A stretch of DNA of 64,000 nt. Source: Cytobacillus oceanisediminis 2691 (GTDB lineage: Bacteria > Bacillota > Bacilli > Bacillales > Cytobacillaceae). The notes below the pieces were generated by a model, which worked only from the letters and a program-made list of their open reading frames with translations, ran no database searches and had not been told where the DNA came from. The stretch covers positions 5,245,501 through 5,309,500 of the forward strand of contig NZ_CP015506.1 of the NCBI RefSeq assembly GCF_000294775.2, given 5' to 3'. Below, piece after piece: positions 4,924 through 62,297 of this stretch (positions are counted from its first letter, which is position 1; every line of letters begins with the position of its first letter). The translations under genes were made by a program, and so were the position numbers.

Positions 4924-5029
4924 GGGCGAGCATGTCCTTTCCGGAAGGTTTCTACCATGATATGCTCGTCCCGAAGTAAAATGCTGAGTTTAGTTTGATT
5001 TACTTGCGGATTGTATGCAAAATTTATTA

Positions 5030-5225
5030 ATTTTTTGCTGATTTGCCGGGTTGGCAGACTAATTTTCTGAGGATTAGCCCGTAACTTTTTGGTTTGCTGC
5101 CTGTTTTCGGTTTGTTTGCAGGTTTACCAGGTTTGTTTGCTTTTTTCCTGATTTGTTTGCCAATTTTAGCTATTGTTTGCTGATTTCCCAGGTTTATTTG
5201 CAACATTCCGGATTTATTTGCAAAG
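5030..5225. repeat. Array 1: phased ~20-nt repeats, core GCAAAYAAA (minus strand)
   Basis: The eamA-xapX gap carries TTTRTTTGC on the plus strand starting at 5111, 5132, 5152, 5172 (variant), 5193 and 5213: steps of 21, 20, 20, 21, 20 nt, with unlike sequence between. More degenerate units extend back to about 5030. The 83-codon frame across it (5027-5278) is low-complexity (KPGKPANKPKTG) and not believed to be a gene. Confidence 0.75.
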
Positions 5226-5243
5226 TTCACATTTAGACATAAA

Positions 5244-5270
5244 GGGTGCCCATAACTTACGTGGACACCC
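5244..5270 (-). terminator. Rho-independent terminator of the xapX-type gene
   Basis: Minus-strand hairpin GGGTGTCC...GGGCACCC (one G-U pair) followed by TTTATG, 7 nt past the stop codon at 5278. Confidence 0.7.
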
Positions 5271-5277
5271 TTTTCCA

Positions 5278-5457
5278 TTATCTCAATATTCCCTGCAGCC
5301 AGGGCAGAACCACTTCATATGCTTTAAACCCGAGGTAAATGCCGACTATCCCCATAATGCCAGGCAGTGCGGGCGGTGCGGGTATCGGCAGCTTCATGAA
5401 AGCAAAGACAAATCCGACGAGAAATCCTGTAAGTATGGATAAAAGAACGATTTTCAT
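5278..5457 (-). CDS. XapX domain small membrane protein
   Basis: 59 residues, MKIVLLSILTGFLVG onward, with two hydrophobic helices around a proline-rich PIPAPPALPGIMGI turn, the XapX domain signature. The ATG follows TTAGGAGGATCTC. Function of the family is unknown; members are small integral membrane proteins. It lies 60 nt beyond the argS terminator and has its own terminator, so it is probably monocistronic. Confidence 0.8.
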   Translation of the reverse strand: MKIVLLSILTGFLVGFVFAFMKLPIPAPPALPGIMGIVGIYLGFKAYEVVLPWLQGILR

Positions 5458-5516
5458 GAGATCCTCCTAAAATAACATATGCCTTTAGCTTCCCCTTTTT
5501 CGTCAAAAACATGAAA

Positions 5517-5542
5517 AAGCCGGCACCTATAAGTGCCAGCTT
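5517..5542 (-). terminator. Rho-independent terminator of argS
   Basis: Minus strand AAGCTGGCAC-TTATA-GGTGCCGGCTT followed by TTTTC, just past the argS stop codon. Confidence 0.85.
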
Positions 5543-5548
5543 TGAGTT

Positions 5549-7216
5549 TTACATTTTTTCCGGTGCAGATACGCCGATTAATTTCAGAGCATTCTTCAAG
5601 GTAGTCTGAACGGCTTTGATCAGTGCCAGTCGGGCTTTGGTTCTTTCCGGATTTTCCGCATCCAGTACTTTTTCAGCATTATAGAAGCTGTGGAAAGAAG
5701 AAGCCAGTTCATAAATATAGTTCGTGATTCTGTGCGGCATGCGCTTTTGCGCAGCTTCTCCGACAGCCTGCGGGAATTCGCCGATTTTCTTCAGAACGTC
5801 GATTTCCTTTTCCGCCTGAATCAGGGAGTAATCTGCAGCTTCGGCAGACATGCCCTGCTCTTCACCCTGGCGCAGGATGCTGGAAATACGCGCGTGTGCG
5901 TACTGGGCATAGTAAACAGGGTTTTCATTTGATTGTGAGACAGCCAGATCAAGGTCAAAATCAAGATGCGTATCTGCGCTTCTCATCGCAAAGAAATAGC
6001 GAGTTGCGTCCAGTCCTACTTCTTCCACAAGGTCACGCATCGTTACCGCTTTGCCGGTACGTTTGCTCATCTTCATTTTTTCGCCGTTTTTGTACAAGTG
6101 TACAAGCTGGATGATTTCGACTTCGAGCGCCTCACGGTCATAGCCAAGCGCCTGGATGGCCGCTTTCATGCGCGGAATGTAGCCATGGTGGTCAGCACCC
6201 CAAATGTTGATCAGCTTTTCAAAGCCTCTTTCAAGCTTGTCTTTATGGTAAGCGATATCTGGAGTCAGATATGTGTAAGAGCCGTCATTTTTAATAAGAA
6301 CACGGTCTTTGTCATCACCGAAAGCAGTTGAGCGGAACCAGGTTGCACCCTCTTCTTCGTAGATGTGGCCGTTATCCTTCAATGCCTGAAGGGCTGTGTC
6401 GATTTTGCCATTATTATAAAGAGATGTTTCAGAATACCAAACATCAAATGGCACACGGAAATCTTCCAGATCCTGCTTCAGCTTTGCCATTTCATATTTC
6501 AGGCCGTATTCACGGAAAAAGTCAAAACGCTCTTTTTCATCCGCATGTACATACTTATCGCCATACTCATCAGCCAGCTTTTTGCCGATGCCGATGATGT
6601 CTTCGCCATGGTAGCCGTCAGCCGGCATTTCTTTTTCAAGGCCAAGAGCCTGGAAATATCGCGCTTCAACCGATAGAGCCAGATTGTTAATCTGGTTGCC
6701 GGCATCATTGATATAGTACTCACGGGAAACCTCATAGCCAGCTTTGTCTAAAATGTTGCATAGGGAGTCGCCGACAGCTGCCCCGCGGGCATGTCCAAGA
6801 TGCAAGTCCCCTGTTGGGTTAGCTGAAACAAACTCGACCTGGATCTTCTGGCTGTTTCCAACTGTTGTTTCTCCGTACCGATCTCCTGCTTCCAGAACGG
6901 CAGGAATCAGATCAGTCAAATAAGAATTATTCATGTAAAAATTAATGAAGCCAGGTCCTGCGATTTCAATTTTTTCAATTGAAGCCTTTGAGCTGTCAAA
7001 ATGAGCAATAAGCTCCTCTGCAATCATTCTTGGCGCTTTTTTTGCCACACGTGCTAATTGCATTGCCATATTCGTGGAATAGTCTCCATGAGCCTTTTCC
7101 TTCGGGATTTCCAGAATTACATCAGGAATCTGCTCTTCCGCTGCTAAGCCAGCCTTTACAACCGCATCCTTAATTTCCTGCTTTAATTTGCCTTGCACCT
7201 GCTCAACTATGTTCAT
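5549..7216 (-). CDS. argS: Arginyl-tRNA synthetase
   Basis: 555 residues counted from ATG 7216 ([10 protein letters not shown]), chosen because GAGGAGGAG lies just upstream; an in-frame extension to 7231 lacks a better ribosome site. Class I synthetase: [15 protein letters not shown] (residues 131-145) holds the HIGH-type motif HLGH (139-142) and KMSKR is at 382-386. The N-terminal domain and the C-terminal DALR anticodon-binding region (about 430-555) are both present. Charges tRNA-Arg with arginine using ATP. It overlaps the end of ywiB by 14 nt, as an operon. Confidence 0.96.
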
Positions 7217-7631
7217 TGTTCTCCTCCTCAAACGTAATCGCCAAATGATATGTACCTGCCTGGGATCCCTGCATTTTCAGATCGTATAAAATATCAATCG
7301 AACCTTCACCAGATTCGTGATCATATTGATGGACCATACGCTTTGTCACCGTGCCCATTTCAAACACTCCGTAAGGCGTTTCATAGCTGCCGCGGAGCTT
7401 TTTATTCATTCTAAAAGGGAGCCTCATCTTTACGGCGCCGCTTCGTAAAATCAGTCCGTCTGCATCGGACATTTTTATGATCGTCTTTACTGTTCCCTCT
7501 TCCATTACTTCATCATACTGAAGGAATCGGGCAGAATCTTTTATATAGTATCGGCCAAAAGCAGTCAATTCAAAAGTCTCTTTGCTGCCAAGCTTGCGAA
7601 TATCTGTCTTCACATTAATCTTCACAGGCAT
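7203..7631 (-). CDS. ywiB: DUF1934 beta-barrel protein YwiB
   Basis: 142 residues from ATG 7631 ([13 protein letters not shown]), the same length as I recall for B. subtilis YwiB; upstream TTGs (7664, 7658) have a GGAAG and would add 11 or 9 residues. Contains [23 protein letters not shown], typical of DUF1934. Lipocalin-like fold by family; biochemical role unknown. Directly upstream of and overlapping argS, as in many Bacillus genomes. Confidence 0.85.
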
Positions 7632-7734
7632 TTGTTCCGCTGAGCGACTGGACAACGGCAACACTTCCTTTTCATCATATATAACTATATAAGTATAAAT
7701 ACTCGCTGGGGAAAGTGCAAGAAGGTGACAGAAA

Positions 7735-7857
7735 GAAAAGCGGAAGCGCCTTGCCCACCCCCGACAAGCACAAGACGGGCCTCCCAGAAAGGCGTTCTTT
7801 GCCTTTTTAGGAGGATTGGCTTGTGACCTCGAGGGGGTAGGCGCTGGAGCTAGACAG
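7735..7857 (+). repeat. Short copy (C) of the GAAAAGCGG...CTAGACAG hairpin repeat
   Basis: Lies between ywiB and speB, antisense to both. A canonical copy: GAAAAGCGGAAGCGCC, CCCACCCCCGACAAGC, CACAAG, central GGCGTTCTTTGCC hairpin, CTTGTGACCTCGAGGGGG, GGCGCTGGAG, CTAGACAG. The outer arms GCGCC/GGCGC pair. Confidence 0.88.
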
Positions 7858-7888
7858 TTATCGACGTTCAGTATTTCTTGAATAAAAA

Positions 7889-7910
7889 AACGGAGACCGA
7901 AGTCCCCGTT
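7889..7910 (-). terminator. Rho-independent terminator of the speE-speB operon
   Basis: Minus strand AACGGGGAC-TTCG-GTCTCCGTT followed by TTTTTTATT: a stable stem with a UUCG tetraloop, overlapping the speB stop codon by one base. Confidence 0.88.
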
Positions 7911-8788
7911 TATTTTTTATTAACCCATCCAAGAATCATTTCCCGGATCAGTTTGCTTGCTGTATTGGCTGTTTGTTCAGATGGATCATAGATGGGCGCA
8001 ACCTCGACAAGGTCAGCTCCAACGACTTTAACATCTGAATGGGCAATTTCATGAATAGAAGCAAGAAGCTCTCTTGACGTAATGCCGCCTGCGTCGACTG
8101 TGCCTGTTCCCGGCGCGTGGGCAGGGTCCAGAACATCAATATCAATCGTTACATAGACCGGACGTCCTGCAAGCTTAGGAAGAATATCTTTCAATGGCTT
8201 ATGCACTTCGAATTTTGAAATGTGCATGCCGACTTCCTTCGCCCACTGGAATTCTTCTTTCATGCCGGAACGGATGCCAAAAGAATAGATATTGCCAGGA
8301 CCAATCAAATCAGCTGCTTTGCGGATTGGCGTTGAATGAGATAATGGCTCCCCTTCATAATCCACACGAAGGTCTGTATGGGCGTCCATGTGGATAATCG
8401 CCAAATCCGGATATTTTTTGTACATTGCTTTGATGACAGGCCAGGAAACCAAATGTTCTCCGCCCATGCCAAGCGGAAATTTATCCTCCGCCAGAAGCTG
8501 ATCGATAAACTCCTCAATCATATCGATGCTTTTCTGCGGATTTCCGAATGGCAGCGGAATATCGCCGGCATCATAATATTTTACCTCTTCAAGCTCACGG
8601 TCCAGGTATGGGCTATACTCTTCAAGCCCGATTGACACTTCTCGGATACGGGCAGGGCCGAAACGGGAGCCCGGACGATAGCTGACTGTCCAGTCCATTG
8701 GCATTCCATAAATGACCGCTTCACTTTCCTCATAACTAGGATGGCTTTTAATAAACACATTGCCTGAATAGGCTTCATCAAAACGCAC
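7910..8788 (-). CDS. speB: Agmatinase
   Basis: 292 residues. GTG 8788 (MRFDEAYSGN) is preferred: GAGGG lies 9 nt before it, whereas the ATG at 8797 abuts GAGGG with no spacing. Ureohydrolase motifs binding two manganese ions are all present: MGGEHLVSWP near residue 110, HMDAHTDLR near 135, and IDIDVLDPAHAPGTG near 215. Hydrolyses agmatine to putrescine and urea. Second gene of a speE-speB unit, so putrescine made here is used by SpeE. Confidence 0.93.
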   Translation of the reverse strand: MRFDEAYSGNVFIKSHPSYEESEAVIYGMPMDWTVSYRPGSRFGPARIREVSIGLEEYSPYLDRELEEVKYYDAGDIPLPFGNPQKSIDMIEEFIDQLLAEDKFPLGMGGEHLVSWPVIKAMYKKYPDLAIIHMDAHTDLRVDYEGEPLSHSTPIRKAADLIGPGNIYSFGIRSGMKEEFQWAKEVGMHISKFEVHKPLKDILPKLAGRPVYVTIDIDVLDPAHAPGTGTVDAGGITSRELLASIHEIAHSDVKVVGADLVEVAPIYDPSEQTANTASKLIREMILGWVNKK

Positions 8789-8822
8789 CAAGGTCATCCC
8801 TCACTTTTTATGTATTCAAGAA

Positions 8823-8842
8823 GGCTGCTCTGAAACGCAGCC
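8823..8842 (-). other. Intercistronic hairpin between speE and speB
   Basis: GGCTGC/GCAGCC with an 8-nt loop, in the 60-nt speE-speB gap. There is no U-run after it, so it is more likely a processing or stabilising stem than a full terminator. Confidence 0.5.
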
Positions 8843-8848
8843 TGTCCA

Positions 8849-9676
8849 TTACTTAACTAAATCTGCAACAAATTTAGGCAATACAAATGCCGCTTTATGC
8901 AATTCTTTCGTATAGTATTTTGTTTCGATCTCATGGAAGCGATCTTCGCTTACTTCTAATGGATCGTATTTTTTAGATCCGATTGTGAACGCCCACATGC
9001 CGCTTGGGTAAGTAGGGATATTCGCAGTGTAAAGACGAGTGATTGGGAAAATTTCTTTCACATCGCGCTGTACGTTGCGGATAAGGTCCGCTTTGAACCA
9101 AGGGTTGTCAGACTGGGCCACAAAGATGCCGTCTTCTTTTAAGGCTTTAGAGATTCCAGCATAGAAGCCTTTCGTGAATAGATTTACCGCAGGTCCTACC
9201 GGCTCAGTTGAGTCAACCATGATCACGTCATATTCATTTTCGCTTTCGGCAATGTGCATGAAGCCATCGCCTACCTGCACATCAACGCGAGGGTCATCAA
9301 GCTTGCCTGCAATCTCAGGAAGGAATTTTTTTGAGTACTCAATAACCTTTCCATCGATATCCACAAGAGTCGCCTTTTTCACGCTTGGGTGCTTAAGGAC
9401 TTCACGGATGACGCCGCCGTCACCGCCGCCAACAACAAGAACGTTTTCAGGGTTTGGATGTGTGAACAAAGGAATATGCGCAACCATCTCATGGTAAACA
9501 AACTCATCCTTGATTGAAGTCATAACCATGTCATCAAGAAGAAGCATATTGCCCCACTCTTCTGTTTCCACCATATCAAGCTTCTGGAATTCTGTCTGTT
9601 CTGTATGTAAAGTACGCTTCACCTTCATCGTAATGCCAAAGTTCTCTGTTTGTTTCTCTGTAAACCAAAGTCCCAT
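8849..9676 (-). CDS. speE: Spermidine synthase
   Basis: 275 residues. Polyamine aminopropyltransferase fold: the GGGDGG nucleotide-binding motif in [18 protein letters not shown] (about residues 82-98), [16 protein letters not shown] (about 106), and [10 protein letters not shown] (about 155) with the catalytic aspartate. N-terminal [13 protein letters not shown] is typical of Bacillus SpeE. Transfers aminopropyl from decarboxylated S-adenosylmethionine to putrescine. First gene of the speE-speB operon with a promoter upstream. Confidence 0.95.
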
Positions 9677-9781
9677 TCTTTAATCATTCCTTCCATAAAA
9701 AAATGAATTATCACTAAAGAGCAGCAAAAAGCATTTTCATCTTTTATACTTCCCTAACATGCAAATAACAAACACAGAAAA

Positions 9782-9809
9782 AGTATAGATGAATCTAGCA
9801 AAATTGCAA
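9782..9809 (-). promoter_or_regulatory. SigA-type promoter of speE-speB
   Basis: Minus strand TTGCAA (9804-9809), 16-nt spacer, TATACT (9782-9787). Leaves a leader of about 100 nt before the speE ATG; no riboswitch recognised in it. Confidence 0.6.
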
Positions 9810-9904
9810 GAAAAATTTCGCTAATTAGTAGAGAAAGATGTTTAAAATCGCTCTGTTTTTTCAATACTGAATACATAGAGCACTTATTAGGGAATTATTT
9901 GGAT

Positions 9905-9990
9905 ACCTCGCCGCACTTATCGTTCAACTTTTAATTTAATCGGCCACTTTGGAACCTTTATCGGTCAGTTTTTATCTTTTCGGTCACTTG
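9905..9990. repeat. Array 2: phased ~20-nt repeats, core GACCGATAAA (minus strand)
   Basis: In the divergent speE/pbpG gap, the motif YTATCGGYCA recurs with its CG at 9921, 9941, 9962 and 9981 (steps 20, 21, 19). It lies between the speE promoter and the pbpG start. The rest of this 366-nt gap shows nothing else recognisable. Confidence 0.7.
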
Positions 9991-10042
9991 GCGCTGTATC
10001 AACTTTTCACTATAAAAAACAGATAAATAGGGGGTGCTTGAT

Positions 10043-12112: not shown

Positions 12113-12130
12113 CGGTGACCACTTGTAAAA

Positions 12131-12149
12131 CTGGTATAGGTGCCTGTCA
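12131..12149. repeat. Half copy of the GGTGACAGGCACCTATACC inverted repeat
   Basis: TGGTATAGGTGCCTGTCA is identical to the right arm of the hairpin at 20069-20119. Only one arm is present here, just past pbpG. Confidence 0.6.
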
Positions 12150-12163
12150 TTTTAATAAAAGTG

Positions 12164-12195
12164 AAAAACCCCGGGGTCCGAATCCCGGGGTTTTT
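12164..12195 (+). terminator. Rho-independent terminator of pbpG
   Basis: AAAAACCCCGGG...CCCGGGGTTTTT, strong GC stem flanked by A and T runs; may act in both directions. Confidence 0.88.
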
Positions 12196-12323
12196 CGTGT
12201 CCTAGTGCTATATTGTGCCTTCACACTGTTAAATAGTTTACTTTTTTTATTGGAATTGTACAAGTAGTTAGAAAATCACGTCAAAAAAATGTCACAATTT
12301 CGTCACAAAATTAGACTTTTTTT

Positions 12324-12836
12324 CTAAATGGCTTGTAAATCTTTTTTTAGCTGTTCCGCTGATCTTTCCCACATGCCGGCGTCATGGTTTTTCAGGAAAT
12401 CTGCCAGCACTTTTTTGGATTTCTCGTCCATATGATCCACTATGATGTGTCTTTTAATCGATTTATCCATGCGGTTCACATGCTCTGGCAGCGATTTGTA
12501 GCCCCGGCGGATTTCTCTGTCGACCGTCATCTCACATGCAGTAACACCTGCATAATAAGCGCCTCCCTCTTTGCGGTCAATGGTGACCCAAATCAGCCAG
12601 TACGGCTTCCCGTTAGGCACTTCCTCTTTGGTTTTCAAAAACTTGATGCCTTTTTCAACAGGGCTGCGCGCATGCATGGCGCCCACTTCAATAGACGCCT
12701 CACCGGCATCCACATCAATAATAACCGGTGTCACATTATCAAGGCTCAGAGTCCCGACCCCAAAACCGCCATGTCCTTCAGTCGGGTCGCTCTTGATTAT
12801 ATTAAAATCGAGTTTCTTTTTCTTTTTTTCTTCCAT
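12324..12836 (-). CDS. ywhD: YwhD family protein
   Basis: 170 residues from ATG 12836, 8 nt after TAGGAGG. A lysine-rich start (MEEKKKKKLDF) leads into a single globular domain with GHGGFGVGTLSLDNVTPV near residue 20 and HARSPVEKGIKFLK near 55. Recognised as the YwhD family of unknown function; neighbours ywhC and pbpG agree with B. subtilis order. No signal peptide or membrane segment. Confidence 0.85.
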   Translation of the reverse strand: MEEKKKKKLDFNIIKSDPTEGHGGFGVGTLSLDNVTPVIIDVDAGEASIEVGAMHARSPVEKGIKFLKTKEEVPNGKPYWLIWVTIDRKEGGAYYAGVTACEMTVDREIRRGYKSLPEHVNRMDKSIKRHIIVDHMDEKSKKVLADFLKNHDAGMWERSAEQLKKDLQAI

Positions 12837-12873
12837 TTTCAAGTCCTCCTAAGCAAAAATTAGGCTCTTATTA

Positions 12874-13899: not shown

Positions 13900-13914
13900 A
13901 ATTGCGTAAAGAAG

Positions 13915-13938: not shown

Positions 13939-13949
13939 TTTTTTATGGT

Positions 13950-14108
13950 TTTTTGCATAATGAGAGGTTTTACTTGCGGATAAAGAAATTTATTTGTATA
14001 TAGACCGATTTTACTTTCGCATAAAAAATCTTATTTGCACATAGTATGATTTTACTTTCGCATAAAAAAATTCCGTGCGGATAACCTGATTTATGTGCGG
14101 TAAGACTT
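13950..14108. repeat. Array 3: phased ~20-nt repeats, core TTNYGCGGATAA (plus strand)
   Basis: Between convergent ywhB and ywgA. The terminal ATAA/ATAG/TAAG of each unit falls at 13980, 14000, 14021, 14041, 14062, 14081 and 14101: steps 20, 21, 20, 21, 19, 20. A less regular unit precedes at 13957. Alternate units are more similar (TTTACTTTCGCATAA twice), suggesting a two-unit duplication. Confidence 0.85.
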
Positions 14109-18671: not shown

Positions 18672-18795
18672 GAGTTAATCGGCAGAATTTATCTATTTAA
18701 CGGCCAAATCAGCTGGTTTATCAGCCTAAGTTATAGTTTTATCGGCCAAATATGGCATTTTAGCGGCCAAACTTGAGCCTTTATCGGCCAAAGGC
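18672..18795. repeat. Array 4: 21-nt phased repeats, core TTTGGCCGATAAA (minus strand)
   Basis: Between pta and lipL. The plus-strand CGG (CAG once) of WTMGGCCAAA falls at 18680, 18701, 18722, 18743, 18764 and 18785: five exact 21-nt steps. About 8 nt between cores vary freely. Confidence 0.88.
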
Positions 18796-27631: not shown

Positions 27632-27764
27632 TTTCCTCACCGTCTTTCAATGTATCTTATCGTTATCCTTTTATTTTACCATCTATTCCGGCCTGTTTCT
27701 TATACGAAGGCCGCTGGAGTTGGCAATATTGTGACGTTCAGCAGGATTTTTTTCTGAAGTTAAT

Positions 27765-27862
27765 TTATGTGCGGATAGACGAAGTTTATGAGCGGATAAA
27801 TTTTTTTACGTGCGGATAAGCGTGATTTATGTGTGCATAGCCTTTTTTATGTGCGTTCAAGT
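27765..27862. repeat. Array 5: phased ~20-nt repeats, core TTTATGTGCGGATAA (plus strand)
   Basis: Between divergent mobA and pdxK. Unit ends (ATAG/ATAA) at 27775, 27796, 27816, 27837 and a decayed one at 27856: steps 21, 20, 21, 19. Several units read ATG-NGC-GGA-TAR, which would be three-codon frames if transcribed. Confidence 0.82.
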
Positions 27863-27991: not shown

Positions 27992-28825
27992 ATGCATATG
28001 ACGATGAAAAAAGTAATGACCATTGCCGGTTCAGATACGAGCGGCGGCGCGGGAATTCAGGCAGACCTTAAGACATTCCAGGAGCTTGGCGTTTACGGGA
28101 TGACTGCGCTGACTACCATTGTGACGATGGATCCTAAAAATAACTGGAGCCACAACGTGTTCCCGATCTCTACAGATATTCTGGAAACACAGATCGAAAC
28201 GATCATATCTACAGGTATTGATGCGATGAAAACAGGCATGCTAGGTTCTGAAGAAGTGATTAAAATTGCGGCAAAGACCATTAAAGAAAACAGCCTGGAT
28301 CATGTTGTCATCGACCCGGTCATGGTCTGCAAAGGTGAAGATGAGCCGATTCATCCTGAATTGAACGAAGCATTAAGAGATTTGCTTGTGCCGCTTGCAA
28401 CAGTGGTAACACCAAATTTATTTGAAGCATGGCAGCTGGCTAAAACAGGTCCAATCAAAACTGTGGAGGACATGAAAGAAGCGGCTGTCAAAATTCATGA
28501 ACTTGGTGCGAAGTATGTATTAATCAAGGGCGGCAGCAAGCTTCAGCACGAAAAAGCCGTTGACCTTCTATATGATGGACAAGAGTTCACTCTTTATGAA
28601 AGCGAACGCGTTGAAACGACTTACACTCATGGCGCAGGCTGCACCTACTCTTCTGCAATCACAGCAGAAATCGCGAAAGGCAAACCTGTCAAAGAAGCGG
28701 TTCAAACAGCGAAGGATTTCATCACTGCCGCCATCAACCATGGCTTTAAGCTAAATGAGTATGTTGGCCCTACGATGCCTGGTGCTTACCGCAAATATAG
28801 CGCAGGCAGTCTTGATTCAGAATAA
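27992..28825 (+). CDS. pdxK: Pyridoxine kinase (PdxK/ThiD-like, YwdB)
   Basis: 277 residues from ATG 27992; AAGGAGG lies 4 nt before it and 10 nt before a second ATG at 27998. Ribokinase-fold HMP/pyridoxine kinase: TIAGSDTSGGAGIQADLKTF at the start, GMTALTTIVTMDP near 35, DPVMVCKGEDEP near 109, and the anion-hole motif YTHGAGCTYSSAI near 212. This sequence resembles B. subtilis PdxK (formerly ThiD/YwdB) more than the thiamine-operon ThiD. Phosphorylates pyridoxine/pyridoxal. Ends with its own terminator. Confidence 0.88.
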   Translation: MHMTMKKVMTIAGSDTSGGAGIQADLKTFQELGVYGMTALTTIVTMDPKNNWSHNVFPISTDILETQIETIISTGIDAMKTGMLGSEEVIKIAAKTIKENSLDHVVIDPVMVCKGEDEPIHPELNEALRDLLVPLATVVTPNLFEAWQLAKTGPIKTVEDMKEAAVKIHELGAKYVLIKGGSKLQHEKAVDLLYDGQEFTLYESERVETTYTHGAGCTYSSAITAEIAKGKPVKEAVQTAKDFITAAINHGFKLNEYVGPTMPGAYRKYSAGSLDSE

Positions 28826-28877: not shown

Positions 28878-28990
28878 CCCGATAAAACGGGGATTTAGCG
28901 GATATATTGATTTTTTCGCGGATAAAATTAAATTTCCGCGGTTATATTTGTTTTTTCGCGGATAATATAACAATTTCGCGGTTATATCTT
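28878..28990. repeat. Array 6: exact 20-nt phased repeats, core TTTCGCGGATAAA (plus strand)
   Basis: After the pdxK terminator. GATAAA/GATATA/GTTATA/GATAAT cores begin at 28881, 28901, 28921, 28941, 28961 and 28981: five exact 20-nt steps. GCGGATA and GCGGTTATA alternate in the later units. Confidence 0.9.
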
Positions 28991-42968: not shown

Positions 42969-43213
42969 CTGTCTAGCTCCAGCGCCTGCCCCCTTGGGGT
43001 CACAAGCCAATCCTCTCAGAAAGGCAAAGAACTCCTTTCCGTGAGGCCTGTCTTAGGCTTGAGGCCCGCAGGACAAGGAAGGCTTCTTCAGCATAATCAT
43101 CGCACGACCAAAAGCGGCAGCTTTTGGGAGGATGCGGGTCATGCAGACGTTGCCACAGGACGTGGCGAGATCTTAGTCTGCGTTCCTTCGTGGGAATGGC
43201 GCTTCCGCTTTTC
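42969..43213 (-). repeat. Long copy (H) of the hairpin repeat, minus orientation
   Basis: Reads CTAGACAG ... GAAAAGCGGAAGCGCC on the minus strand in reverse, i.e. its GAAAAGCGG end abuts the stop codon of the small minus-strand gene at 43214. Contains the AACGCAGAC...CCACGTCCTGTGG...GTCTGC and CCAAAAGC/GCTTTTGG modules seen in copy A, plus the terminal CACAAG/CTTGTG arms. Confidence 0.85.
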
Positions 43214-47710: not shown

Positions 47711-47780
47711 CTGATATGACGGGAAGTGACCGATATATCAACATTTTAACCGATAACATTAGAAACCCGGCCGATTAACA
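47711..47780. repeat. Array 7: phased ~20-nt repeats, core ACCGATAA (plus strand)
   Basis: After yjiH. GATATG, GATATA, GATAAC and GATTAA begin at 47713, 47732, 47752 and 47773: steps 19, 20, 21. Confidence 0.7.
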
Positions 47781-49545: not shown

Positions 49546-49974
49546 GAAAAGCGGAAGCGCCTTGCCCACGAAGGAACGCAGACTAAGAACGCCACGTCCT
49601 GTGGCAACGTCTGCATGACCCCCATCCGGGGCCCCAAGCACAAGACGAGCCTCCCGAAAAGGCGTTCTTTGCCTTTTTGGGAGGATTGCCCGAAATGAGG
49701 AGGCGACTGCCCAGGGACGACAGGCATAAGACAGTTCCTGCAAGAAGGCGTTCTTCCTTCTGAAAGGAAACGGCTTATGACCCCGAGTCCCTAGGAGCCG
49801 AAACAAGACAAACCGAAATGTGTAGGCGACTGCTCAGGGACGACAAGCATAAGACGAGCCCTGCAAGAAGGTGTTTTTTCCTTCTGAAAGGGAATGGCTT
49901 ATGTCTCGAGTCCCTAGGAGCCTCAACAAGACAAGCTTGTGACCTCGAGGGGGTAGGCTGCTTGCGCTAGACAA
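49546..49974 (+). repeat. Longest compound copy (I) of the hairpin repeat
   Basis: 429 nt. Order: GAAAAGCGGAAGCGCC; AACGCAGAC...CCACGTCCTGTGG...GTCTGC; a CTCCCGAAAAGGC/GCCTTTTTGGGAG hairpin; then two tandem modules with AGGGACGACA(G/A)GCATAAG ... GGCTTATG ... GAGTCCCTAGGAGCC; then CTTGTGACCTCGAGGGGG and CTAGACAATTATCG. Compared with copy A it lacks the CCAAAAGC hairpin and has an extra CATAAG module. Frames through it are repeat-derived. Confidence 0.88.
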
Positions 49975-54067: not shown

Positions 54068-54093
54068 GGAGAGTTTCATCACTGAAACTCTCC
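54068..54093 (-). terminator. Rho-independent terminator of the partition operon
   Basis: Minus strand GGAGAGTTTCA-GTGA-TGAAACTCTCC followed by TTTTTTG, just past the stop codon at 54100. Confidence 0.88.
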
Positions 54094-54099
54094 CCAAGC

Positions 54100-54702: not shown

Positions 54703-54713
54703 GAAAAATCACC

Positions 54714-55895: not shown

Positions 55896-55983
55896 ATCAT
55901 TCAATCCTTTCATTCTCAAATATAGAGCTATTGTTTTAAGAGTAATTCAGATTGAGAGATTAATCAATGTAAGGAAATAAAAA

Positions 55984-56169
55984 GTAATCAAAGCGTAAAG
56001 ACGTAAACAAATTGTAAACTTATACCTACATTGTATACACTTTCCGTATACAAGTAAACAATATTGAACACATCCTTACACACCAACATGTACACGCGTT
56101 TGTATACTTGTTTACATTTTTGAATACAACTGTAAACAATATCGCATACTTGTATTCATTTTTGTTTAC
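55984..56169. repeat. Centromere-like phased repeats (parC candidate)
   Basis: At least twelve GTAAAC/GTATAC/GTTTAC-type hexamers at about 55984, 55995, 56003, 56014, 56033, 56046, 56054, 56090, 56102, 56110, 56122, 56132, 56144, 56152 and 56164. Steps are mostly 8 or 10-13, often alternating 8 and 12, i.e. about 20 nt per pair. A 14-mer GTATACAAGTAAAC (56046) recurs inverted as GTATACTTGTTTAC (56102). The block covers the region upstream of the actin-like gene and would hold its promoter and the partition site. The remaining 56170-56362 is AT-rich leader of the next gene. Confidence 0.75.
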
Positions 56170-56362
56170 AACCAAGTTTATTTGGTGTTTTTCCTGAAAT
56201 TTGATAGTTTAAGAGATAAAATAATATCCTGCTTGTCTCTAACAAAAATGAAATAAAATAGATAATATTAAAAAATTTAGAAAATATATTAAATTTGTCT
56301 ACTTTCTAGAAAAAAATTCCTATAAAATAGAGGTATAACAACAGGCAAAGGAGTACAGAAAG

Positions 56363-57631
56363 ATGCAAGGCTCCAGAATATTTATGGTTTCGCTTTTTAT
56401 TGTTTCACTTTTTACAGCTCTGATCTCGGACGGGATCATTGTCGAGAGCTCTTCATATATAAAAGCACTCTTCATATACTTGCTGTTTTCCTGCTTGTAT
56501 CACCATTTGCGGATTATCAGCAGAAACGGAAATACGTCCATCGATTATGGAATTAATTACAGTCTCTCCATTGGGCTTTTTACAGGGCCATTAGGTTTAT
56601 TTATATTTGAAGTCATCTATCGATTTAGTGTTTATTTATATAAGAAACAAACAAAAACAGACGATCCGGATGAATTTTTCCATACGTTTTATAACATTGG
56701 CTCCTTTGTGATGAGCAACTCTATTGCATTCTATTTATTCAATCTGCTGTATCCCCTCTTTCAGGATGCGGCATTCGGCTTTTGGATAATCATGCTTATT
56801 CTGATTACCGTAACATCCATGCTTTCAGACATCTTCCTGGTTACCGTGTTTAAATTGACAGGAGACATAAAAACGAAGCAGGAAGCGATTGATTTTATCA
56901 AAACAAGAAGTGTACTGGATATGGGGAAGATTGCCTTTACTAATGGTCTTTTGCTGTTATTTCTTAATGAGGGCAAATGGGAGATGCTCATAAGTCTGTT
57001 TATACTTAATTATCTTGTCAGCCGTTCCTTTCTGTCGAAATCACAGATGCTGCAGAATAAAATCGAACGCGATAAATTTGAGCAGATGGCCTATACCGAC
57101 TTCCTTACTGGTGTTTTTAACCGTGCTTATATGGATAAAAAAATGACGGAACTTAATCAATCGGCGGAACACATCGCGATTGTAGTGGCAGATATCGACA
57201 AGTTCAAAAGGATTAATGATAGCTATAACCACGCCGTGGGCGATCAGGCAATCAGGCACTTTGCCGACTCATTGAAGAGCTATCTTTCCAAAGATGATTA
57301 CTTGTTCAGAAGCGGCGGAGAGGAATTTACCATAATAATGAGATTCAGGTCATATGAAGAATGCTTGAATTTAGCTCAGAAGATACGCAAAGGCATTGAA
57401 AACAGCACATTTCATGCCGATTTTAAAGACCAGTCCATTTCTCTATCCTACACAGCATCCTTTGGCCTCTTTTACTATAAAGTGAACAAGCTCCTTTCTA
57501 TTGAAAAAGCCTATGTTTACGCAGACCAGCTCCTTCTGCAGTCTAAGGACATGGGAAAAAACAGGCTATCCTCCAGGGAAGAATCAATTCATCAGCATAG
57601 CCCTAAAGAAGCAGTACTTACAAACGCATAA
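56363..57631 (+). CDS. Membrane diguanylate cyclase (GGDEF domain)
   Basis: 422 residues. Six hydrophobic segments in the first 220 residues form a membrane sensor; then FEQMAYTDFLTGVFNRAYMD (about 240) starts the GGDEF domain with ADIDKFKRINDSYNHAVGDQ and the active motif RSGGEEFTI. The position nine residues before the GG is Ser, so the RxxD inhibitory site is absent. Predicted to make cyclic di-GMP from two GTP. Divergent from the partition operon, no sign of co-transcription. AAAGGAGTACAG precedes the ATG. Confidence 0.88.
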   Translation: MQGSRIFMVSLFIVSLFTALISDGIIVESSSYIKALFIYLLFSCLYHHLRIISRNGNTSIDYGINYSLSIGLFTGPLGLFIFEVIYRFSVYLYKKQTKTDDPDEFFHTFYNIGSFVMSNSIAFYLFNLLYPLFQDAAFGFWIIMLILITVTSMLSDIFLVTVFKLTGDIKTKQEAIDFIKTRSVLDMGKIAFTNGLLLLFLNEGKWEMLISLFILNYLVSRSFLSKSQMLQNKIERDKFEQMAYTDFLTGVFNRAYMDKKMTELNQSAEHIAIVVADIDKFKRINDSYNHAVGDQAIRHFADSLKSYLSKDDYLFRSGGEEFTIIMRFRSYEECLNLAQKIRKGIENSTFHADFKDQSISLSYTASFGLFYYKVNKLLSIEKAYVYADQLLLQSKDMGKNRLSSREESIHQHSPKEAVLTNA

Positions 57632-57644
57632 GGATATTTGCAGC

Positions 57645-57664
57645 AGCCGCCGGTTTGAGCGGCT
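57645..57664 (+). terminator. Rho-independent terminator of the diguanylate cyclase gene
   Basis: AGCCGC-CGGTTTGA-GCGGCT then TTTTTTT. Confidence 0.85.
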
Positions 57665-57811
57665 TTTTTTTATGGGAATAATACCTCTGTTTTTAGATAA
57701 GTTTTAATACTGTTATTATTCTGAAAAAACGTTCTTTTGTTTAAATCTCTGGAAAAATCTATTTATTCCGCCTAAAAAGTCAATAATAACCATCGTTACA
57801 TAAAATTTTTT

Positions 57812-57841
57812 TTGACAATTAGGAACTATGAAAGATATTAT
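57812..57841 (+). promoter_or_regulatory. SigA promoter of the peptide transporter gene
   Basis: TTGACA (57812-57817), 18-nt spacer, TATTAT (57836-57841), followed by AAAAGGAGGATGAAAC and ATG 57867. Confidence 0.75.
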
Positions 57842-57866
57842 AGAATAGCTAAAAGGAGGATGAAAC

Positions 57867-59360
57867 ATGTCAGATTTTAATAGGCAGAAAATTGTTGAAA
57901 GTGTGCCTCAAAAAGGTTTCTTTGGACATCCTAAAGGCTTGTTCACACTTTTCTTCACTGAATTTTGGGAGCGCTTTTCTTATTATGGAATGAGAGCGAT
58001 CCTTGTATTCTATATGTATTATGAGGTTTCAAAAGGCGGTTTAGGCCTGGATGAGCCGACAGCTTTAGCTATCATGTCCATTTATGGGTCATTGGTGTAT
58101 ATGTCAGGAATCATCGGCGGATGGATAGCCGACAGATTGCTCGGAACCTCCAGAGCTGTATTCTATGGCGGAATTTTAATCATGCTCGGCCATATTGCCC
58201 TTTCTATTCCTGGCAGCCTGGCTATGTTCTTTGTTTCCATGGTGCTGATCGTATTAGGTACTGGATTATTGAAGCCAAATGTATCAAGCGTGGTTGGGGA
58301 TATTTACAGCCCGGAAGATAACCGCCGCGATGCAGGTTTCAGTATTTTCTATATGGGTATCAACCTTGGCGGATTCCTTGCGCCTTTAATTGTCGGAACA
58401 GTTGGAATGGATTATAATTTCCACCTAGGTTTCGCCATTGCTGCCGTTGGTATGTTCTTTGGCTTATTAGTGTTTGTTTTTACGAAAAAGAAAAATCTTG
58501 GATTAGCAGGAACTTATGTATCTAATCCATTATCAGCAGATGAAAAAGGTAAGGTTTATACAAGAATTGGCCTTGGTGCTGCTGTTGTTGCCATTTTAGT
58601 GGCAGTCGGCATCCCAACTGGTCTTTTAACATTTGATTCGTTTATTGCCCTTGTTGGTGTTCTTGGTATTGGGCTTCCGATTATTTACTTTACTGTAATG
58701 TACCGCAGCCCGAAAACAACAGAAGTGGAACGCTCACGCATCATTGCTTATATTCCATTATTCATTGCATCTGTTATGTTCTGGGCTATCCAGGAGCAGG
58801 GTTCAACGATTCTTGCGAATTATGCGGACAAGCGTACCCAGCTTGACTTTATGGGTCTTGATATTTCACCGGCATGGTTCCAGTCTCTTAACCCATTGTT
58901 CATCATTTTCTTTGCGCCAGTATTTGCCTGGCTATGGGTGAAGCTTGGCGACCGCCAGCCTTCAGTGCCGCAGAAGTTCTCCCTGGGTCTATTATTCGCC
59001 GGTTTATCTTTCCTTGTGATTCTGCTGCCAGCATACCTTGGGGGAACAGATTCTCTTGTAAGTCCATTATGGCTGGTTCTTAGCTACTTTATTGTTGTTC
59101 TTGGTGAGCTTTGCTTATCTCCAGTCGGACTTTCAGCCACAACAAAATTAGCGCCTGCTGCTTTCTCGGCGCAAACGATGAGCCTTTGGTTCCTATCAAA
59201 TGCGGCCGCACAGGCAATCAATGCACAGATTGTTAAGTTCTATTCACCAGAAACAGAAATGACTTATTTCGGTGTAATTGGTGCAGCTGCGATCGTGCTA
59301 TCCATTATCCTATTCATGTTGAGTCCTAAGATTCAAGGATATATGAAGGGTGTACGTTAA
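57867..59360 (+). CDS. POT/PTR-family di- and tripeptide transporter (DtpT-like)
   Basis: 497 residues with about fourteen hydrophobic helices. The proton-coupling signature FFTEFWERFSYYGMRAILVFYM (about 30-51) contains the ExxERFxYYG motif. GGWIADRLLG near 85 and GFSIFYMGINLGGFLAPL (about 152) are further POT signatures. Takes up di-/tripeptides with protons. Monocistronic. Confidence 0.93.
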   Translation: MSDFNRQKIVESVPQKGFFGHPKGLFTLFFTEFWERFSYYGMRAILVFYMYYEVSKGGLGLDEPTALAIMSIYGSLVYMSGIIGGWIADRLLGTSRAVFYGGILIMLGHIALSIPGSLAMFFVSMVLIVLGTGLLKPNVSSVVGDIYSPEDNRRDAGFSIFYMGINLGGFLAPLIVGTVGMDYNFHLGFAIAAVGMFFGLLVFVFTKKKNLGLAGTYVSNPLSADEKGKVYTRIGLGAAVVAILVAVGIPTGLLTFDSFIALVGVLGIGLPIIYFTVMYRSPKTTEVERSRIIAYIPLFIASVMFWAIQEQGSTILANYADKRTQLDFMGLDISPAWFQSLNPLFIIFFAPVFAWLWVKLGDRQPSVPQKFSLGLLFAGLSFLVILLPAYLGGTDSLVSPLWLVLSYFIVVLGELCLSPVGLSATTKLAPAAFSAQTMSLWFLSNAAAQAINAQIVKFYSPETEMTYFGVIGAAAIVLSIILFMLSPKIQGYMKGVR

Positions 59361-59372
59361 TAGAAAAGCGGA

Positions 59373-59400
59373 AGCCAGAAGAGTGTATGCTCTTCTGGCT
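59373..59400 (+). terminator. Rho-independent terminator of the peptide transporter gene
   Basis: AGCCAGAAGAG-TGTATG-CTCTTCTGGCT then TTTTTTAG. The 10 nt before it (GAAAAGCGGA) equal the 5' end of the hairpin repeat family. Confidence 0.88.
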
Positions 59401-59416
59401 TTTTTTAGTATCTTCT

Positions 59417-59492
59417 CGGCCGGTAAATTCGTCAGTTTGGCCGGTATTTCTTTCAAATCGGCCGGTAAATGTTCTATTTGGGCCGGTAAACA
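59417..59492. repeat. Array 8: 21-nt phased repeats, core GGCCGGTAAA (plus strand)
   Basis: GGTAAA or GGTATT begin at 59422, 59443, 59464 and 59485: three exact 21-nt steps. Lies between the convergent transporter and cupin genes. Confidence 0.85.
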
Positions 59493-59499
59493 GCAGTCT

Positions 59500-60000
59500 T
59501 CATTCTTTCCACTCTTCAAGCATCGGCCCCTCATCACCATAGACAGGATCAGTCTGAGGAACAGGGACATTTTTGATTTCTGCCAGTGCTTGTACACGAT
59601 CTGATGGGTCTTTTTTCTTCATATTCGGGCTTGTTCCGCCAGGATAGGCACCTACGACTTCGAAGTCCGGACTGCTTTCCGCATTCTTATGCCCTGTCCC
59701 TGCCGGGAGGAGAATAACATCGCCCTGATGGAGGTCAAGGCGCTCGCCCTGGTCACCGCCGATGAGGACGGTTGCTTGTCCTGCTTTGACACCCAGTACT
59801 TCATGAGTATTGCTGTGATAATGATGGTAATCATATACCCCGCCCGTCCAGCTGCCGGTCCATTGATGTCTGTTAAAAGCCGCCTCTATTTCATCAGGCT
59901 GCTCCTTAAAAACGGCCTTGTAGATGATAACAGGAAGGTCCGGATTGTTGGGTATTTGTCCATCATCCGCCAGCTGAAATGTTTGGGTTTGGCTATTCAA
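59500..60000 (-). CDS. Cupin domain protein
   Basis: 166 residues from a TTG start after AAGGAGAGG. Cupin motif 1 YHHYHSNTHEVLGVKAGQATV (about 60) and motif 2 GDVILLPAGTGHKNAES (about 94) with the usual His/Glu metal ligands. Similar to uncharacterised YjlB-type cupins. Ligand and activity unknown. 24 nt after ypfJ, likely co-transcribed. Confidence 0.8.
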   Translation of the reverse strand: MNSQTQTFQLADDGQIPNNPDLPVIIYKAVFKEQPDEIEAAFNRHQWTGSWTGGVYDYHHYHSNTHEVLGVKAGQATVLIGGDQGERLDLHQGDVILLPAGTGHKNAESSPDFEVVGAYPGGTSPNMKKKDPSDRVQALAEIKNVPVPQTDPVYGDEGPMLEEWKE

Positions 60001-60024
60001 GTGAACCTCTCCTTTCGTATTGCT

Positions 60025-60870
60025 TCAATTTCTTTGTTTAAACGTGTCTCCGCCTTTGATGGTTCCGTTTTGGAATCCTTTGTAGAACCATGACTTTCTT
60101 TGTTCTGACGTTCCATGGGTAAAGCTTTCCGGCACTACATAGCCCTGCGCCCGTTTTTGAAGGGTGTCGTCCCCTACTGCCGTTGCAGCATTCAGGGCTT
60201 CTTCCAGATCGCCTTCCTCTAAATATCCCATTCCCTGTGCATGGTTGGCCCAAACGCCTGAATAATAATCGGCCTGCAATTCAAAACGGACAAGATACTG
60301 ATTAAACTTTTCTTCACTCATTCTCTGACGAAGCGGCATGATTTCCTCAGTCGTTCCAAGCAGGGTCTGCACATGGTGCCCTACCTCATGGGCTATGACA
60401 TAGGCCATGGCAAAATCGCCAGGAGCCTGGAACTTTCTTTGCAGTTCTTCGTAAAAGCTTAAATCAATATACAATTTTTGGTCGCCCGGACAATAAAAAG
60501 GCCCAACGGAAGAGGACGCTGCCCCGCATGCAGACTGTACGCTGCCTGAATATAAAACAAGGGTCGGCTCCTCATATTGCAATCCCTGTTCTTCGAATAT
60601 TTCCGTCCAGACTTCCTCTGTATCCGCAAGCACAACAGAGACAAAATCAGCAAGCTCTTTTTCCTGTTCTGATTCTTCATACGGTACAGCTGTGCCAGAG
60701 TCTGTTCCGGCCATATTGCCTAAAAGCTCTCCCGGATCACCGCCGAGGAAGGTAAATATCAATAAAATAATAATTCCGCCGAGGCCGCCGCCAATCAGGG
60801 TTTTTCCCCCTCCGCCCATGCCTCTTCGGTCTTCTACATTAGAACTCGCTCTTCTGCCTTTCCACTTCAT
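60025..60870 (-). CDS. YpfJ-family neutral zinc metallopeptidase
   Basis: 281 residues. Basic N-terminus, one membrane helix (about 24-42), then the conserved domain with ADTEEVWTEIFEEQGLQYE, GPFYCPGDQKLYID and the zinc site YVIAHEVGHHVQTLLG (about 157-172), plus ELQADYYSGVWA (about 195-206) as the likely further ligand region. Membrane-anchored with the protease outside; substrate unknown. First gene of a two-gene unit with the cupin. Confidence 0.88.
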   Translation of the reverse strand: MKWKGRRASSNVEDRRGMGGGGKTLIGGGLGGIIILLIFTFLGGDPGELLGNMAGTDSGTAVPYEESEQEKELADFVSVVLADTEEVWTEIFEEQGLQYEEPTLVLYSGSVQSACGAASSSVGPFYCPGDQKLYIDLSFYEELQRKFQAPGDFAMAYVIAHEVGHHVQTLLGTTEEIMPLRQRMSEEKFNQYLVRFELQADYYSGVWANHAQGMGYLEEGDLEEALNAATAVGDDTLQKRAQGYVVPESFTHGTSEQRKSWFYKGFQNGTIKGGDTFKQRN

Positions 60871-60962
60871 GATTCAGCCTCCTACTGAAACGCCATTTAT
60901 CATTCATTTCATTAGTGTATACCCGAATTGAAGGGATTTATTAACTTAGCAGAATTAAAAAT

Positions 60963-60987
60963 AGGTGCCTGCTGCAAACAGGCACCT
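60963..60987 (-). terminator. Terminator of the broken FAD oxidoreductase gene
   Basis: Minus strand AGGTGCCTG-TTTGCAG-CAGGCACCT then ATTTTTAATT. Confidence 0.8.
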
Positions 60988-60996
60988 TTACCCTTA

Positions 60997-62083
60997 TTAT
61001 TTTTCTATCGCGCCAGCCGGATCATAGAGGTCCAGGTCAATATCCACCTCTTGCCCGAGAGCAAGCTTGGCAAGCTGGGCACCCAGAAACGGCCCTGCGG
61101 TCAGCCCTGAGGCTCCAAGTCCATTTGATATGTAAAGACCCTTTATGCCCGGAATTTGGCCGATAATGGGCAAGAAACCGGGTGTATAGGGACGGAAGCC
61201 CACACGTGCTTCTGTGAACGTTCCATCAGACAATCCAGGGGCTATTGCTAGCGCTTTTTCAAAAATTTCATTTAGGCCGCCAGCTGTCACCCTTAGATCA
61301 TAGCCTATATTATCTTCATGGGTGGCACCAACGACGATGCGGCCGCCTTCAAAAGCCAGAATGTATTGGTTGTTTGGCGGCATCACAACAGGCCATTTGC
61401 CCGTTTCCTCCTCTTCAAGCTGAAGATGGACAATCTGCGCTTTTTGCGGCTTTACATCCAATTGAATACCAAGCGGCTTCAAAAGCTCACCAGCCCACGC
61501 GCCAGCTGCTGCGATGACACTATCTGCTTCATATTGCTTTCCGCCGGCTTTTACAGCTGTGACCCTGTCTCCTTGGCACAAAAGTTCAGCAGAGTCATGA
61601 ACCAATACAGCACCATGTTTTTCTGCTGCCCGCAGCAGGGCGTCCCTTAATTCCCGGCCGTTGACGCGCGCCGCTCCGCTTACATGTACAGAGGCATATT
61701 CCTTTGATAAAGGCGGAAACAGCTCCAATGTCTGGTCTGGAGATAATGGTGTAATCTCTCCCACTTCAGGTGCATCACCGCGTCTTGTTGCTGCACGTTC
61801 TTCCATTTTTTCAAGCTTTACAGGGTCGGTATGAAGGCTGACGGCTCCTACCTTCTGATAGCCCGTCTTCGTCTCTCCGTCCTTTTCAAGCTCCCGGATT
61901 AATGTTTGATAATAGGCCGCTCCCCCTTTGGCCAGCGCGTACCACGCCTTATTCCGCCGCTGCGTCTGTTGCCTGCCCCGGGTCTTTGCGGTCGATAACG
62001 GTGACATTTGCACCTGCCTTAGCCAAATGGTAGGCTGCAGAGGCCCCCAGGATTCCTGCACCAATGATGATATGACTTTTCAT
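60997..62083 (-). pseudogene. FAD-dependent oxidoreductase (glycine-oxidase/DadA-like), frameshifted
   Basis: From ATG 62083 (after AAGGAG) comes MKSHIIIGAGILGASAAYHL, the FAD-binding Rossmann motif, to GQATDAAAE and a stop at 61949. The protein continues in another frame from about 61960 with RRNKAWYALAKGGAAYYQTLI to the end, including GLYISNGLGASGLTAGPFLG and the C-terminal DAO domain. The break sits at CCGCCGCTGC (61954-61963; GCAGCGGCGG on the coding strand), which reads as Ala-Ala-Ala in frame 1 and Gln-Arg-Arg in frame 2. This suggests a deletion between two copies of that 10-mer, probably about 32 nt judging by my memory of the family (AAAGI-CPW-LSQRRNKAW). The product is probably inactive unless frameshifting occurs. 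Confidence 0.82.
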
Positions 62084-62179
62084 AATGACTCCTTTTTGCG
62101 ATCTAGTTTGCCACTTATTTTACAAGAGTTTGGGGCAGTGCACAAAATAATCATGGCAGACGCGTATTCATATTTGCAC

Positions 62180-62297
62180 GGTGATATTGCTGGAAAGCTG
62201 CTGGGGCGCGGGGTGACCGATAAAGTGGTATTTTGACCGATATCGGCCGATATATATAAAATCTGACTGATATACCTGGCACAGCGGCCTGATAAGT
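62180..62297. repeat. Array 9: irregular GATA repeats, core GACCGATA (plus strand)
   Basis: GATATT, GATAAA, GATATC, GATATA, GATATA and GATAAG at 62183, 62219, 62239, 62249, 62269 and 62291. Steps of 20 (twice), about 22 and a half step of 10, so phased but more eroded than the other arrays. No gene seen in 62084-62413. Confidence 0.55.

What the first reader, a model, noticed from the sequence alone, without database searches (positions are those of the whole stretch)
4990..62297. Family of intergenic arrays with a strict 20-21 nt period and a GATAAA-like core
Ten gaps in this window (about 5030, 9905, 13950, 18672, 21050, 27765, 28878, 47711, 59417, 62180) hold 2-8 degenerate repeats whose cores recur at 19-22, mostly 20 or 21 nt. 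Core flavours: GCGGATAA, GGCCGATAAA, GACCGATAAA, GGCCGGTAAA, GCAAAYAAA. Two helical turns per unit would place every core on one DNA face. They occur in convergent, divergent and tandem gaps, so they are not tied to one gene type. I do not know a described element of this kind (known CRISPR, REP or BOX elements do not fit).
Basis: partly seen in the sequence, partly recalled or inferred. Interest (0 to 1): 0.75.

Follow-up and report, generated by a model that had tools for sequence, protein, structure and literature searches.

The report
Helically phased intergenic repeat arrays, Bacillaceae
Soil Bacillaceae carry many scattered non-coding DNA elements made of short sites spaced two turns of the helix apart, often six in a row, which look like docking platforms for an unknown DNA-binding factor.

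Summary
Intergenic DNA of this Cytobacillus window has sharp repeat peaks at lags 20-21 and 40-42 that dinucleotide shuffles lack. Of base periods 12-39 scanned, 20-21 nt gives by far the most arrays. Six of ten claimed gaps stand alone; three more (13950, 47711, 62180) are weak or decayed here but clear in sister species; 21050 is not supported.

They are not one motif. They form dispersed families (GACCGATA, GGCCGGTA, TGCGSATA; CGCCAATA in Mesobacillus; others), each at several unlinked loci. Anatomy: 8-nt cores in units of 20 or 21 nt, six units as the usual count in two of four families tested, family-specific leaders, and A/T-tracts phased near 10-10.5 bp in three of four. Units come and go whole; some arrays are missing in sister species. 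Spacers diverge 2.3 times faster than cores.

Best reading: a DNA-level platform for a helically phased protein assembly, spread like other bacterial interspersed repeats. The protein and the means of spread are inferred, not shown. Eight searches of open-access papers found no description.

The parts
5088..5224 (-). array, GCAAAYAAA family, 7 units chained
   Evidence: score 28; G005 32, G006 34; G001 holds a 42-nt dimer in three copies here
9917..9986 (-). array, GGTC/GGCC-CGATAA type, 4 units, in a divergent gap
   Evidence: score 10; absent at this site in all five relatives aligned
13962..14108 (+). array, TGCGSATA family, partly eroded, behind a terminator in a convergent gap
   Evidence: score 9 here; 24, 18, 26 in G005, G006, G009
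18675..18789 (-). array, GGCCGATAAA family, 6 units of 21 nt
   Evidence: score 24; orthologues with one to two fewer units in G005, G006, G009
27764..27860 (+). array, TGCGSATA family, 5 units chained, last unit TTTATGTGCGTTCA, in a divergent gap
   Evidence: score 20; orthologue in G005; same terminal unit in 4 of 10 family members
28885..28990 (+). array, TTCGCGGATA family, units of 20 nt
   Evidence: score 23; fewer units in G005, G006 and others, full length in G009
47728..47776 (+). decayed GACCGATA-type array, three cores left
   Evidence: not called in G000; score 17 in G005; absent in G009, G001, G003
59416..59489 (+). array, GGCCGGTA family, 4 units of 21 nt, behind a terminator in a convergent gap
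   Evidence: score 18; 5 units in G006 and G001; absent in G003
62215..62272 (+). decayed GACCGATA-family array, four cores left, irregular spacing
   Evidence: score 6 here, 22 in G006 and G009, 6 cores in G005; absent in G001 and G003

Best explanation
Members of several dispersed families of non-coding DNA elements. SHOWN: units of 20 or 21 nt with an 8-nt core shared within a family; six units as the usual count in two of four families tested (about 123 bp), 3-9 in the others; family-specific leader or terminal unit in many copies; A/T-tracts phased near one helical turn in three of four families; gain and loss in whole units; several loci per family per genome; enrichment between convergent genes. 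INFERRED: each element is a DNA-level platform. Phased A/T-tracts curve the DNA, and a DNA-binding factor, probably a different or diverged one for each family, occupies the cores on one helix face every two turns and builds a nucleoprotein assembly in the space behind genes (nucleoid architecture, or a topological or transcriptional boundary). Co-evolution with that factor would keep cores uniform within a family, let an array change core as a whole, and let a family decay where the factor is lost. The protein, its effect and the means of dispersal are not identified.
For: By far the most arrays at one period although sequences are unrelated. Six units in 14 of 20 Mesobacillus G044 arrays and 10 of 14 GACCGATA arrays of G005. 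Leader inverted repeat AACTGGAAA...TTTCCAGTT before 19 of 20 G044 arrays; 8 nt before the first core within two changes of CGCGAAGT in 10 of 14 G005 arrays, against 0.3% of nearby positions. A/T-tract power at 10-10.5 bp above within-spacer shuffles, best z 22, 11 and 32 in three families. Divergence 65/848 in cores against 194/1077 in spacers. Both strand orientations occur relative to genes in Cytobacillus, and mean RNA folding z is between -1.3 and +0.8 in three of four families, so a DNA-level role is favoured. CCGRTA pairs: 98 in G005 against 9 in the reversed control, 51 against 19 in G001, 11 against 14 in G003, as expected if a family depends on a lineage-specific factor.
Against: No binding protein known. 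Cores (7.7%) are hardly more conserved than flanks (9.1%). The TGCGSATA family phases its A/T-tracts at 20.5, not 10.5 bp, and folds somewhat better than shuffles as sense RNA (mean z -2.0). GGCCGGTA and TGCGSATA arrays vary from 3 to 9 strict units. Part of the core uniformity follows from searching for the core. The six-unit counts come from arrays found by exact core pairs, which favours intact ones. Origin-side enrichment exceeds the Bacillaceae-1 control in one of three genomes only. In G044 a gene points into the leader in 16 of 20 arrays, which could hint at a role in transcripts.
Confidence: 0.42

Rival explanations
1. Selfish interspersed repeats: non-autonomous elements copied by a transposase or recombinase acting in trans and tolerated behind genes. 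The cores are the binding sites of that enzyme; there is no benefit to the host.
For: Several unlinked copies per family with shared leaders and spacer patterns; presence/absence between sister species; depletion in divergent gaps, where promoters lie; lineage-specific families.
Against: No terminal inverted repeats bounding both ends, target duplications or clean empty sites were seen by eye. REP-type transposase genes (PF01797) are absent from G005 and G001, which are rich in arrays, and no array lies in the about 3.3-kb loci around the five PF01797 hits found. One period and phased A/T-tracts across unrelated families are not expected of unrelated elements.
Confidence: 0.3
2. RNA-level element: arrays are transcribed and act as multi-hairpin or multi-site RNAs, for instance protein sponges or 3'-end stabilisers.
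For: TGCGSATA sense mean fold z -2.0; GGCCGGTA spacer ends covary, 139 complementary pairs against 113 expected at the best of five offsets; a gene points into the leader in 16 of 20 G044 arrays.
Against: Mean fold z between -1.3 and +0.8 on either strand in the other three families; both orientations in tandem gaps (25 same, 19 opposite); 20-nt and 21-nt units mix as helical phasing, not hairpin geometry, would predict.
Confidence: 0.1
3. Topoisomerase-wrapping sites: about 123 bp of phased bendable DNA behind convergent genes binds gyrase and absorbs supercoils, as proposed for E. coli BIMEs (recalled).
For: Length, A/T phasing at 10-10.5 bp in three families and convergent-gap enrichment, 18 of 57 against 113 of 829.
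Against: Gyrase is shared, so family-specific invariant cores and family decay are unexplained; no central cleavage-site-like feature was identified; never tested here.
Confidence: 0.08
4. Ordinary minisatellites: slippage made them and nothing selects them.
For: Whole-unit and dimer duplications are visible, for instance the 42-nt dimer in G001 and repeats inside L187 and L234.
Against: Does not explain one period for unrelated sequences, the usual count of six, shared leaders at unlinked loci, or spacers diverging faster than cores.
Confidence: 0.05

Closest known systems
REP/BIME elements and their RAYT transposases
   Same: Short dispersed intergenic repeats in many copies, clustered with regular spacing, often downstream of genes (abstracts of PMC2817692 and PMC3733652 in listings; passages of PMC3733652).
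   Different: REPs are 20-40 bp palindromes tagged GTAG or CGTC; here all cores of an array face one way, cores are 8 nt, and PF01797 is absent from two array-rich genomes.
BOX elements of Streptococcus pneumoniae (recalled)
   Same: Modular dispersed repeat whose middle module is repeated in tandem.
   Different: boxB units are about 45 nt (recalled), not two helical turns; sequences were not compared here.
Bacillaceae-1 RNA (RF01690) and the 52-nt Bacillaceae repeat
   Same: Dispersed intergenic elements in the same genomes.
   Different: Neither has the 20-21 nt period; Rfam at gathering thresholds marks no array in the window.
Plasmid iterons and Tn7/Mu-type transposon end sites (recalled)
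   Same: Tandem sites spaced about 20-22 bp, bound on one DNA face.
   Different: Here many copies along a chromosome; I did not search systematically for initiator or transposase genes beside them.
Close direct repeats, pattern class 8n4g24 (PMC4060949, passages)
   Same: An 8-mer repeated four or more times with gaps up to 24 nt would count these arrays.
   Different: In the passages seen the class is tallied by phylum and growth temperature; no element, period or family is named.

Membership tests
REP/BIME with RAYT | palindromic unit forming a stem-loop | tested here: not met
   mean fold z between -1.3 and +0.8 in three families; TGCGSATA sense -2.0; leader inverted repeat only in the Mesobacillus family
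REP/BIME with RAYT | Y1 transposase (PF01797) in the genome, flanked by the repeats | tested here: not met
   absent in G005 and G001; one hit each in G000, G003, G042, G044, G047, none with an array in its locus
CRISPR | direct repeats of roughly 21-48 nt with longer unique spacers (recalled) | tested here: not met
   core about 8 nt, spacer 12-13 nt, spacers partly shared between loci
CRISPR | cas genes nearby | not tested
   no cas search was made
BOX | fixed outer modules around a variable inner repeat | tested here: inconclusive
   5' leader in 19 of 20 G044 and 10 of 14 G005 arrays; no conserved 3' module seen by eye in those families; terminal unit in 4 of 10 TGCGSATA arrays
ordinary minisatellite | spacer and core diverge alike, any period | tested here: not met
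noc/racA-type chromosome-position sites | excess on the origin side beyond other repeats | tested here: inconclusive
   25/29, 12/12, 23/27 arrays against 33/47, 25/45, 21/32 Bacillaceae-1 matches; Fisher p 0.17, 0.005, 0.13; origin placed by inference in G001 and G005
gyrase wrapping site | bound and cleaved by gyrase | not testable with these tools
   needs ChIP or Topo-Seq

The most novel reading that the evidence does not exclude
A previously undescribed class of chromosomal DNA element in Bacillales: intrinsically curved DNA carrying about six phased sites of a lineage-specific factor, in many copies behind genes, whose recognition cores change family by family. It would be a bacterial analogue of a co-evolving satellite and satellite-binding protein, serving nucleoid architecture.
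Probability: 0.3. Interest if true: 0.9.

Novelty: new variant of a known kind. Interest (0 to 1): 0.72.

Why it matters
Known bacterial intergenic repeats are mostly palindromes or insertion remnants. Here unrelated sequences in several genera obey one physical rule, two helical turns per unit and often six units. That points to a shared protein architecture and makes a direct question: pull down what binds, and ask whether nucleoid folding or crosstalk between convergent genes changes when arrays are removed. A change of core with retained spacing would be a natural record of a binding specificity changing in evolution.

Tried and rejected
One transcription-factor operator: rejected, since cores differ by family and genus. 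RNA hairpin array: tested by folding and by strand orientation, not supported in three of four families. REP/RAYT: rejected. Noc/RacA-like origin bias: inconclusive after the Bacillaceae-1 control. Target-duplication or empty-site evidence for insertion: looked for by eye; no clean case. Replication-strand orientation: both strands in both arms, by inspection. The lag-52 signal is a different repeat and was set aside.

Literature: eight searches of the open-access library (two of them held no paper) showed no description of such arrays in the listings; two papers were seen as passages only, the others as listings. Most subscription journals are not covered.

Limits of counts: the 70 arrays include orthologues and, by eye, about seven T-rich or operator-like hits (L010, L058, L060, L078, L091, L139:2456, L140:12795). 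The 57 arrays of the gap-type count are 58 minus one at a locus edge and still hold some orthologues; the background of 829 gaps comes from the window and L002-L101, most of them around one gene, with genes called by a simple ORF rule. Array positions were read by me after leaving out matches that looked coding or isolated; the G005 and G001 lists cover CCGRTA-type families only. Stretches were chosen near expected sites, so they are no random sample. The E. coli stretch held only 2,995 non-ORF nt and says little.
Full report
ORGANISM. The window is G000:C1:5245501-5309500 in a 5.46-Mb contig. Its pyridoxine-kinase gene (27992-28825) is 97-99% identical at the protein level to eight records, among them Cytobacillus oceanisediminis and C. 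firmus. From GC skew and gene strand in 20 samples the replication origin lies near position 0 and the terminus near 2.5 Mb.

THE OBSERVATION. Intergenic autocorrelation peaks at lags 20, 21, 40, 41 and 42 (z 9-15 against 100 dinucleotide shuffles), with smaller rises at 33, 43, 50, 54 and 63; coding DNA shows no comparable peak. A chain detector that links similar 10-mers at lags 19-22 or 40-43 finds 10 arrays at score >=10 in 66 kb of own-genome non-ORF DNA, against 0.1 in shuffles, and 3 in 396 kb of coding DNA. Moving it through base periods 12-39 over 314 kb of non-ORF DNA gives 70 arrays at 20-21, shoulders beside it, 14-18 at 25-27 (attributed to the 52-nt repeat seen), harmonics at 38-40, and 0-3 elsewhere. 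Six of the ten claimed gaps pass alone, three more pass in sister species, 21050 fails.

NOT ONE MOTIF BUT FAMILIES. In 29 of 80 loci around pyridoxine-kinase relatives an array scores >=10 (a stricter detector gave 18 of 80), with many different cores, for example TTCGCCAATAAA, TTCGCTATAAA, GGATCATT, TTTTTGCAA, AATAGCCATAAC, TATTCGCG. Within a genome a core recurs at unlinked loci. In G000, core pairs at this spacing number 17 (CCGATA), 17 (GCGGATA-GCGSATA) and 14 (GCCGGTA), against 3, 0 and 0 for the reversed control; some of the CCGATA and GCGGATA pairs lie in ORFs. CCGRTA pairs: G000 44 against 10 control, G005 98 against 9, G001 51 against 19, G003 11 against 14. In G044 (the genome of L071, titled Mesobacillus selenatarsenatis SF-1) CGCCAATA pairs number 125 against 0, and 5 of 12 genomes tested carry such pairs, all with 0 control matches. 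Three of 15 sampled genomes from other families of the order also carry arrays: L293 GTTTATGCGY, L297 GTTCRNTTAA, L299 TTGTCCGAAG, in 47,150 non-ORF nt.

ANATOMY. Of twenty G044 arrays fetched, 14 have exactly six units, three seven, two three and one five; 19 of 20 are preceded by the inverted repeat AACTGGAAA...TTTCCAGTT or a near variant. Of fourteen GACCGATA arrays of G005, ten have six units; the 8 nt before the first core are CGCGAAGT exactly in 4 and within two changes in 10, against 0.3% of nearby positions. GGCCGGTA arrays have 3-9 and TGCGSATA arrays 3-6 strict units; 4 of 10 TGCGSATA arrays end in TTTATGTGCGTTYA. Cores carry 1.8-2.0 bits per base and spacers 0.6-1.1, partly because cores were the search key. 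Spacers often come in two alternating classes, which gives lags of 20,21,20,21; in GGCCGGTA arrays they are AAT-N5-ATT and TTT-N5-AAA, with 139 complementary end pairs against 113 expected at the best of five offsets, over 68 spacers. A/T-tracts peak at 10-10.5 bp in three families (best z 22, 11, 32) but at 20.5 bp in TGCGSATA (z 19). RNA folding is unremarkable in three families; TGCGSATA sense strands fold better than shuffles (mean z -2.0, ten arrays).

EVOLUTION. Orthologous gaps in G005, G006, G009, G001 and G003 show whole-unit differences of about 20, 21 and 40-42 nt; the 9917 array is only in G000, 47711 is missing in G009, G001 and G003, 59416 in G003, and 62180 in G001 and G003. Of 20 G005 elements examined, 14 had an orthologous G000 site in the DNA held; by eye, the GACCGATA elements among them are mostly contracted or eroded in G000, and one site (L256/L186) carries GGCCGWTAAA in G005 but mostly CCGGTA cores in G000 with spacers that look homologous. 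At another conserved neighbourhood two pairs of Mesobacillus-like loci carry TTCGCTATAAA (L064, L068) and TTCGCCAATAAA (L067, L071) arrays at similar positions. Pooled over six genome pairs and 25 array comparisons that passed a flank-identity filter, divergence is 65/848 in cores, 194/1077 in spacers and 169/1853 in flanks; a less filtered count gave cores below spacers in all six comparisons, with small contrasts in two.

LOCATION. Of 57 arrays in four families, 18 lie in convergent and 7 in divergent gaps, against 113 and 248 of 829 background gaps (p 8e-4 and 4e-3). In Cytobacillus and mixed loci, tandem gaps hold arrays in both orientations (25 same, 19 opposite, of 76 placed); in G044 a gene points into the leader in 16 of 20 (p 0.012 against one half). 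Arrays favour the origin half of the chromosome (25/29, 12/12, 23/27), but so does the Bacillaceae-1 control (33/47, 25/45, 21/32), and the excess is significant in one of three genomes.

MECHANISM. One period for unrelated sequences, a usual count in two families, shared cores, faster spacers, phased A/T-tracts and no consistent RNA structure argue for a DNA-level assembly on one helix face. Which factor binds and what it does is inference. Shared leaders and copy number argue that the elements also spread, or once spread, as interspersed repeats; no transposase link or clean insertion was found.

NOVELTY. Bacterial interspersed repeats are a known kind. REP/BIME was tested and not met; BOX is the nearest in layout (recalled). 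A published survey counts a pattern class that would include such arrays without naming an element in the passages I saw (PMC4060949). Eight open-library searches showed no description.

Noticed in passing
window 1897-1958 +, 43117-43192 -, 49567-49632 +: Three Bacillaceae-1 RNA copies (RF01690); 47, 32 and 45 matches in G000, G005 and G001.
   Followed up: partly
noncoding DNA of many related loci, e.g. L023 and L028 upstream of pyridoxine kinase: A separate dispersed repeat with a strong lag-52 signal.
   Followed up: no
window 49690-49934: A 123-nt tandem duplication, 86% matches.
   Followed up: no
G001 region 62456 and the same gap in G003 and G009: An operator-like array of GTATAC/GTAAAC boxes, symmetric and unlike the element families.
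   Followed up: no
L204, L209, L229: Arrays of CGCCAATAGAACC-type units of 21 nt without the AACTGG leader: the same core in a different family context; the genome was not told for these loci.
   Followed up: no
L293, L297, L299 (other families of the order): Strong 20-21 nt arrays with other cores, one of 12 chained units, so the phenomenon is wider than Bacillaceae sensu stricto.
   Followed up: partly
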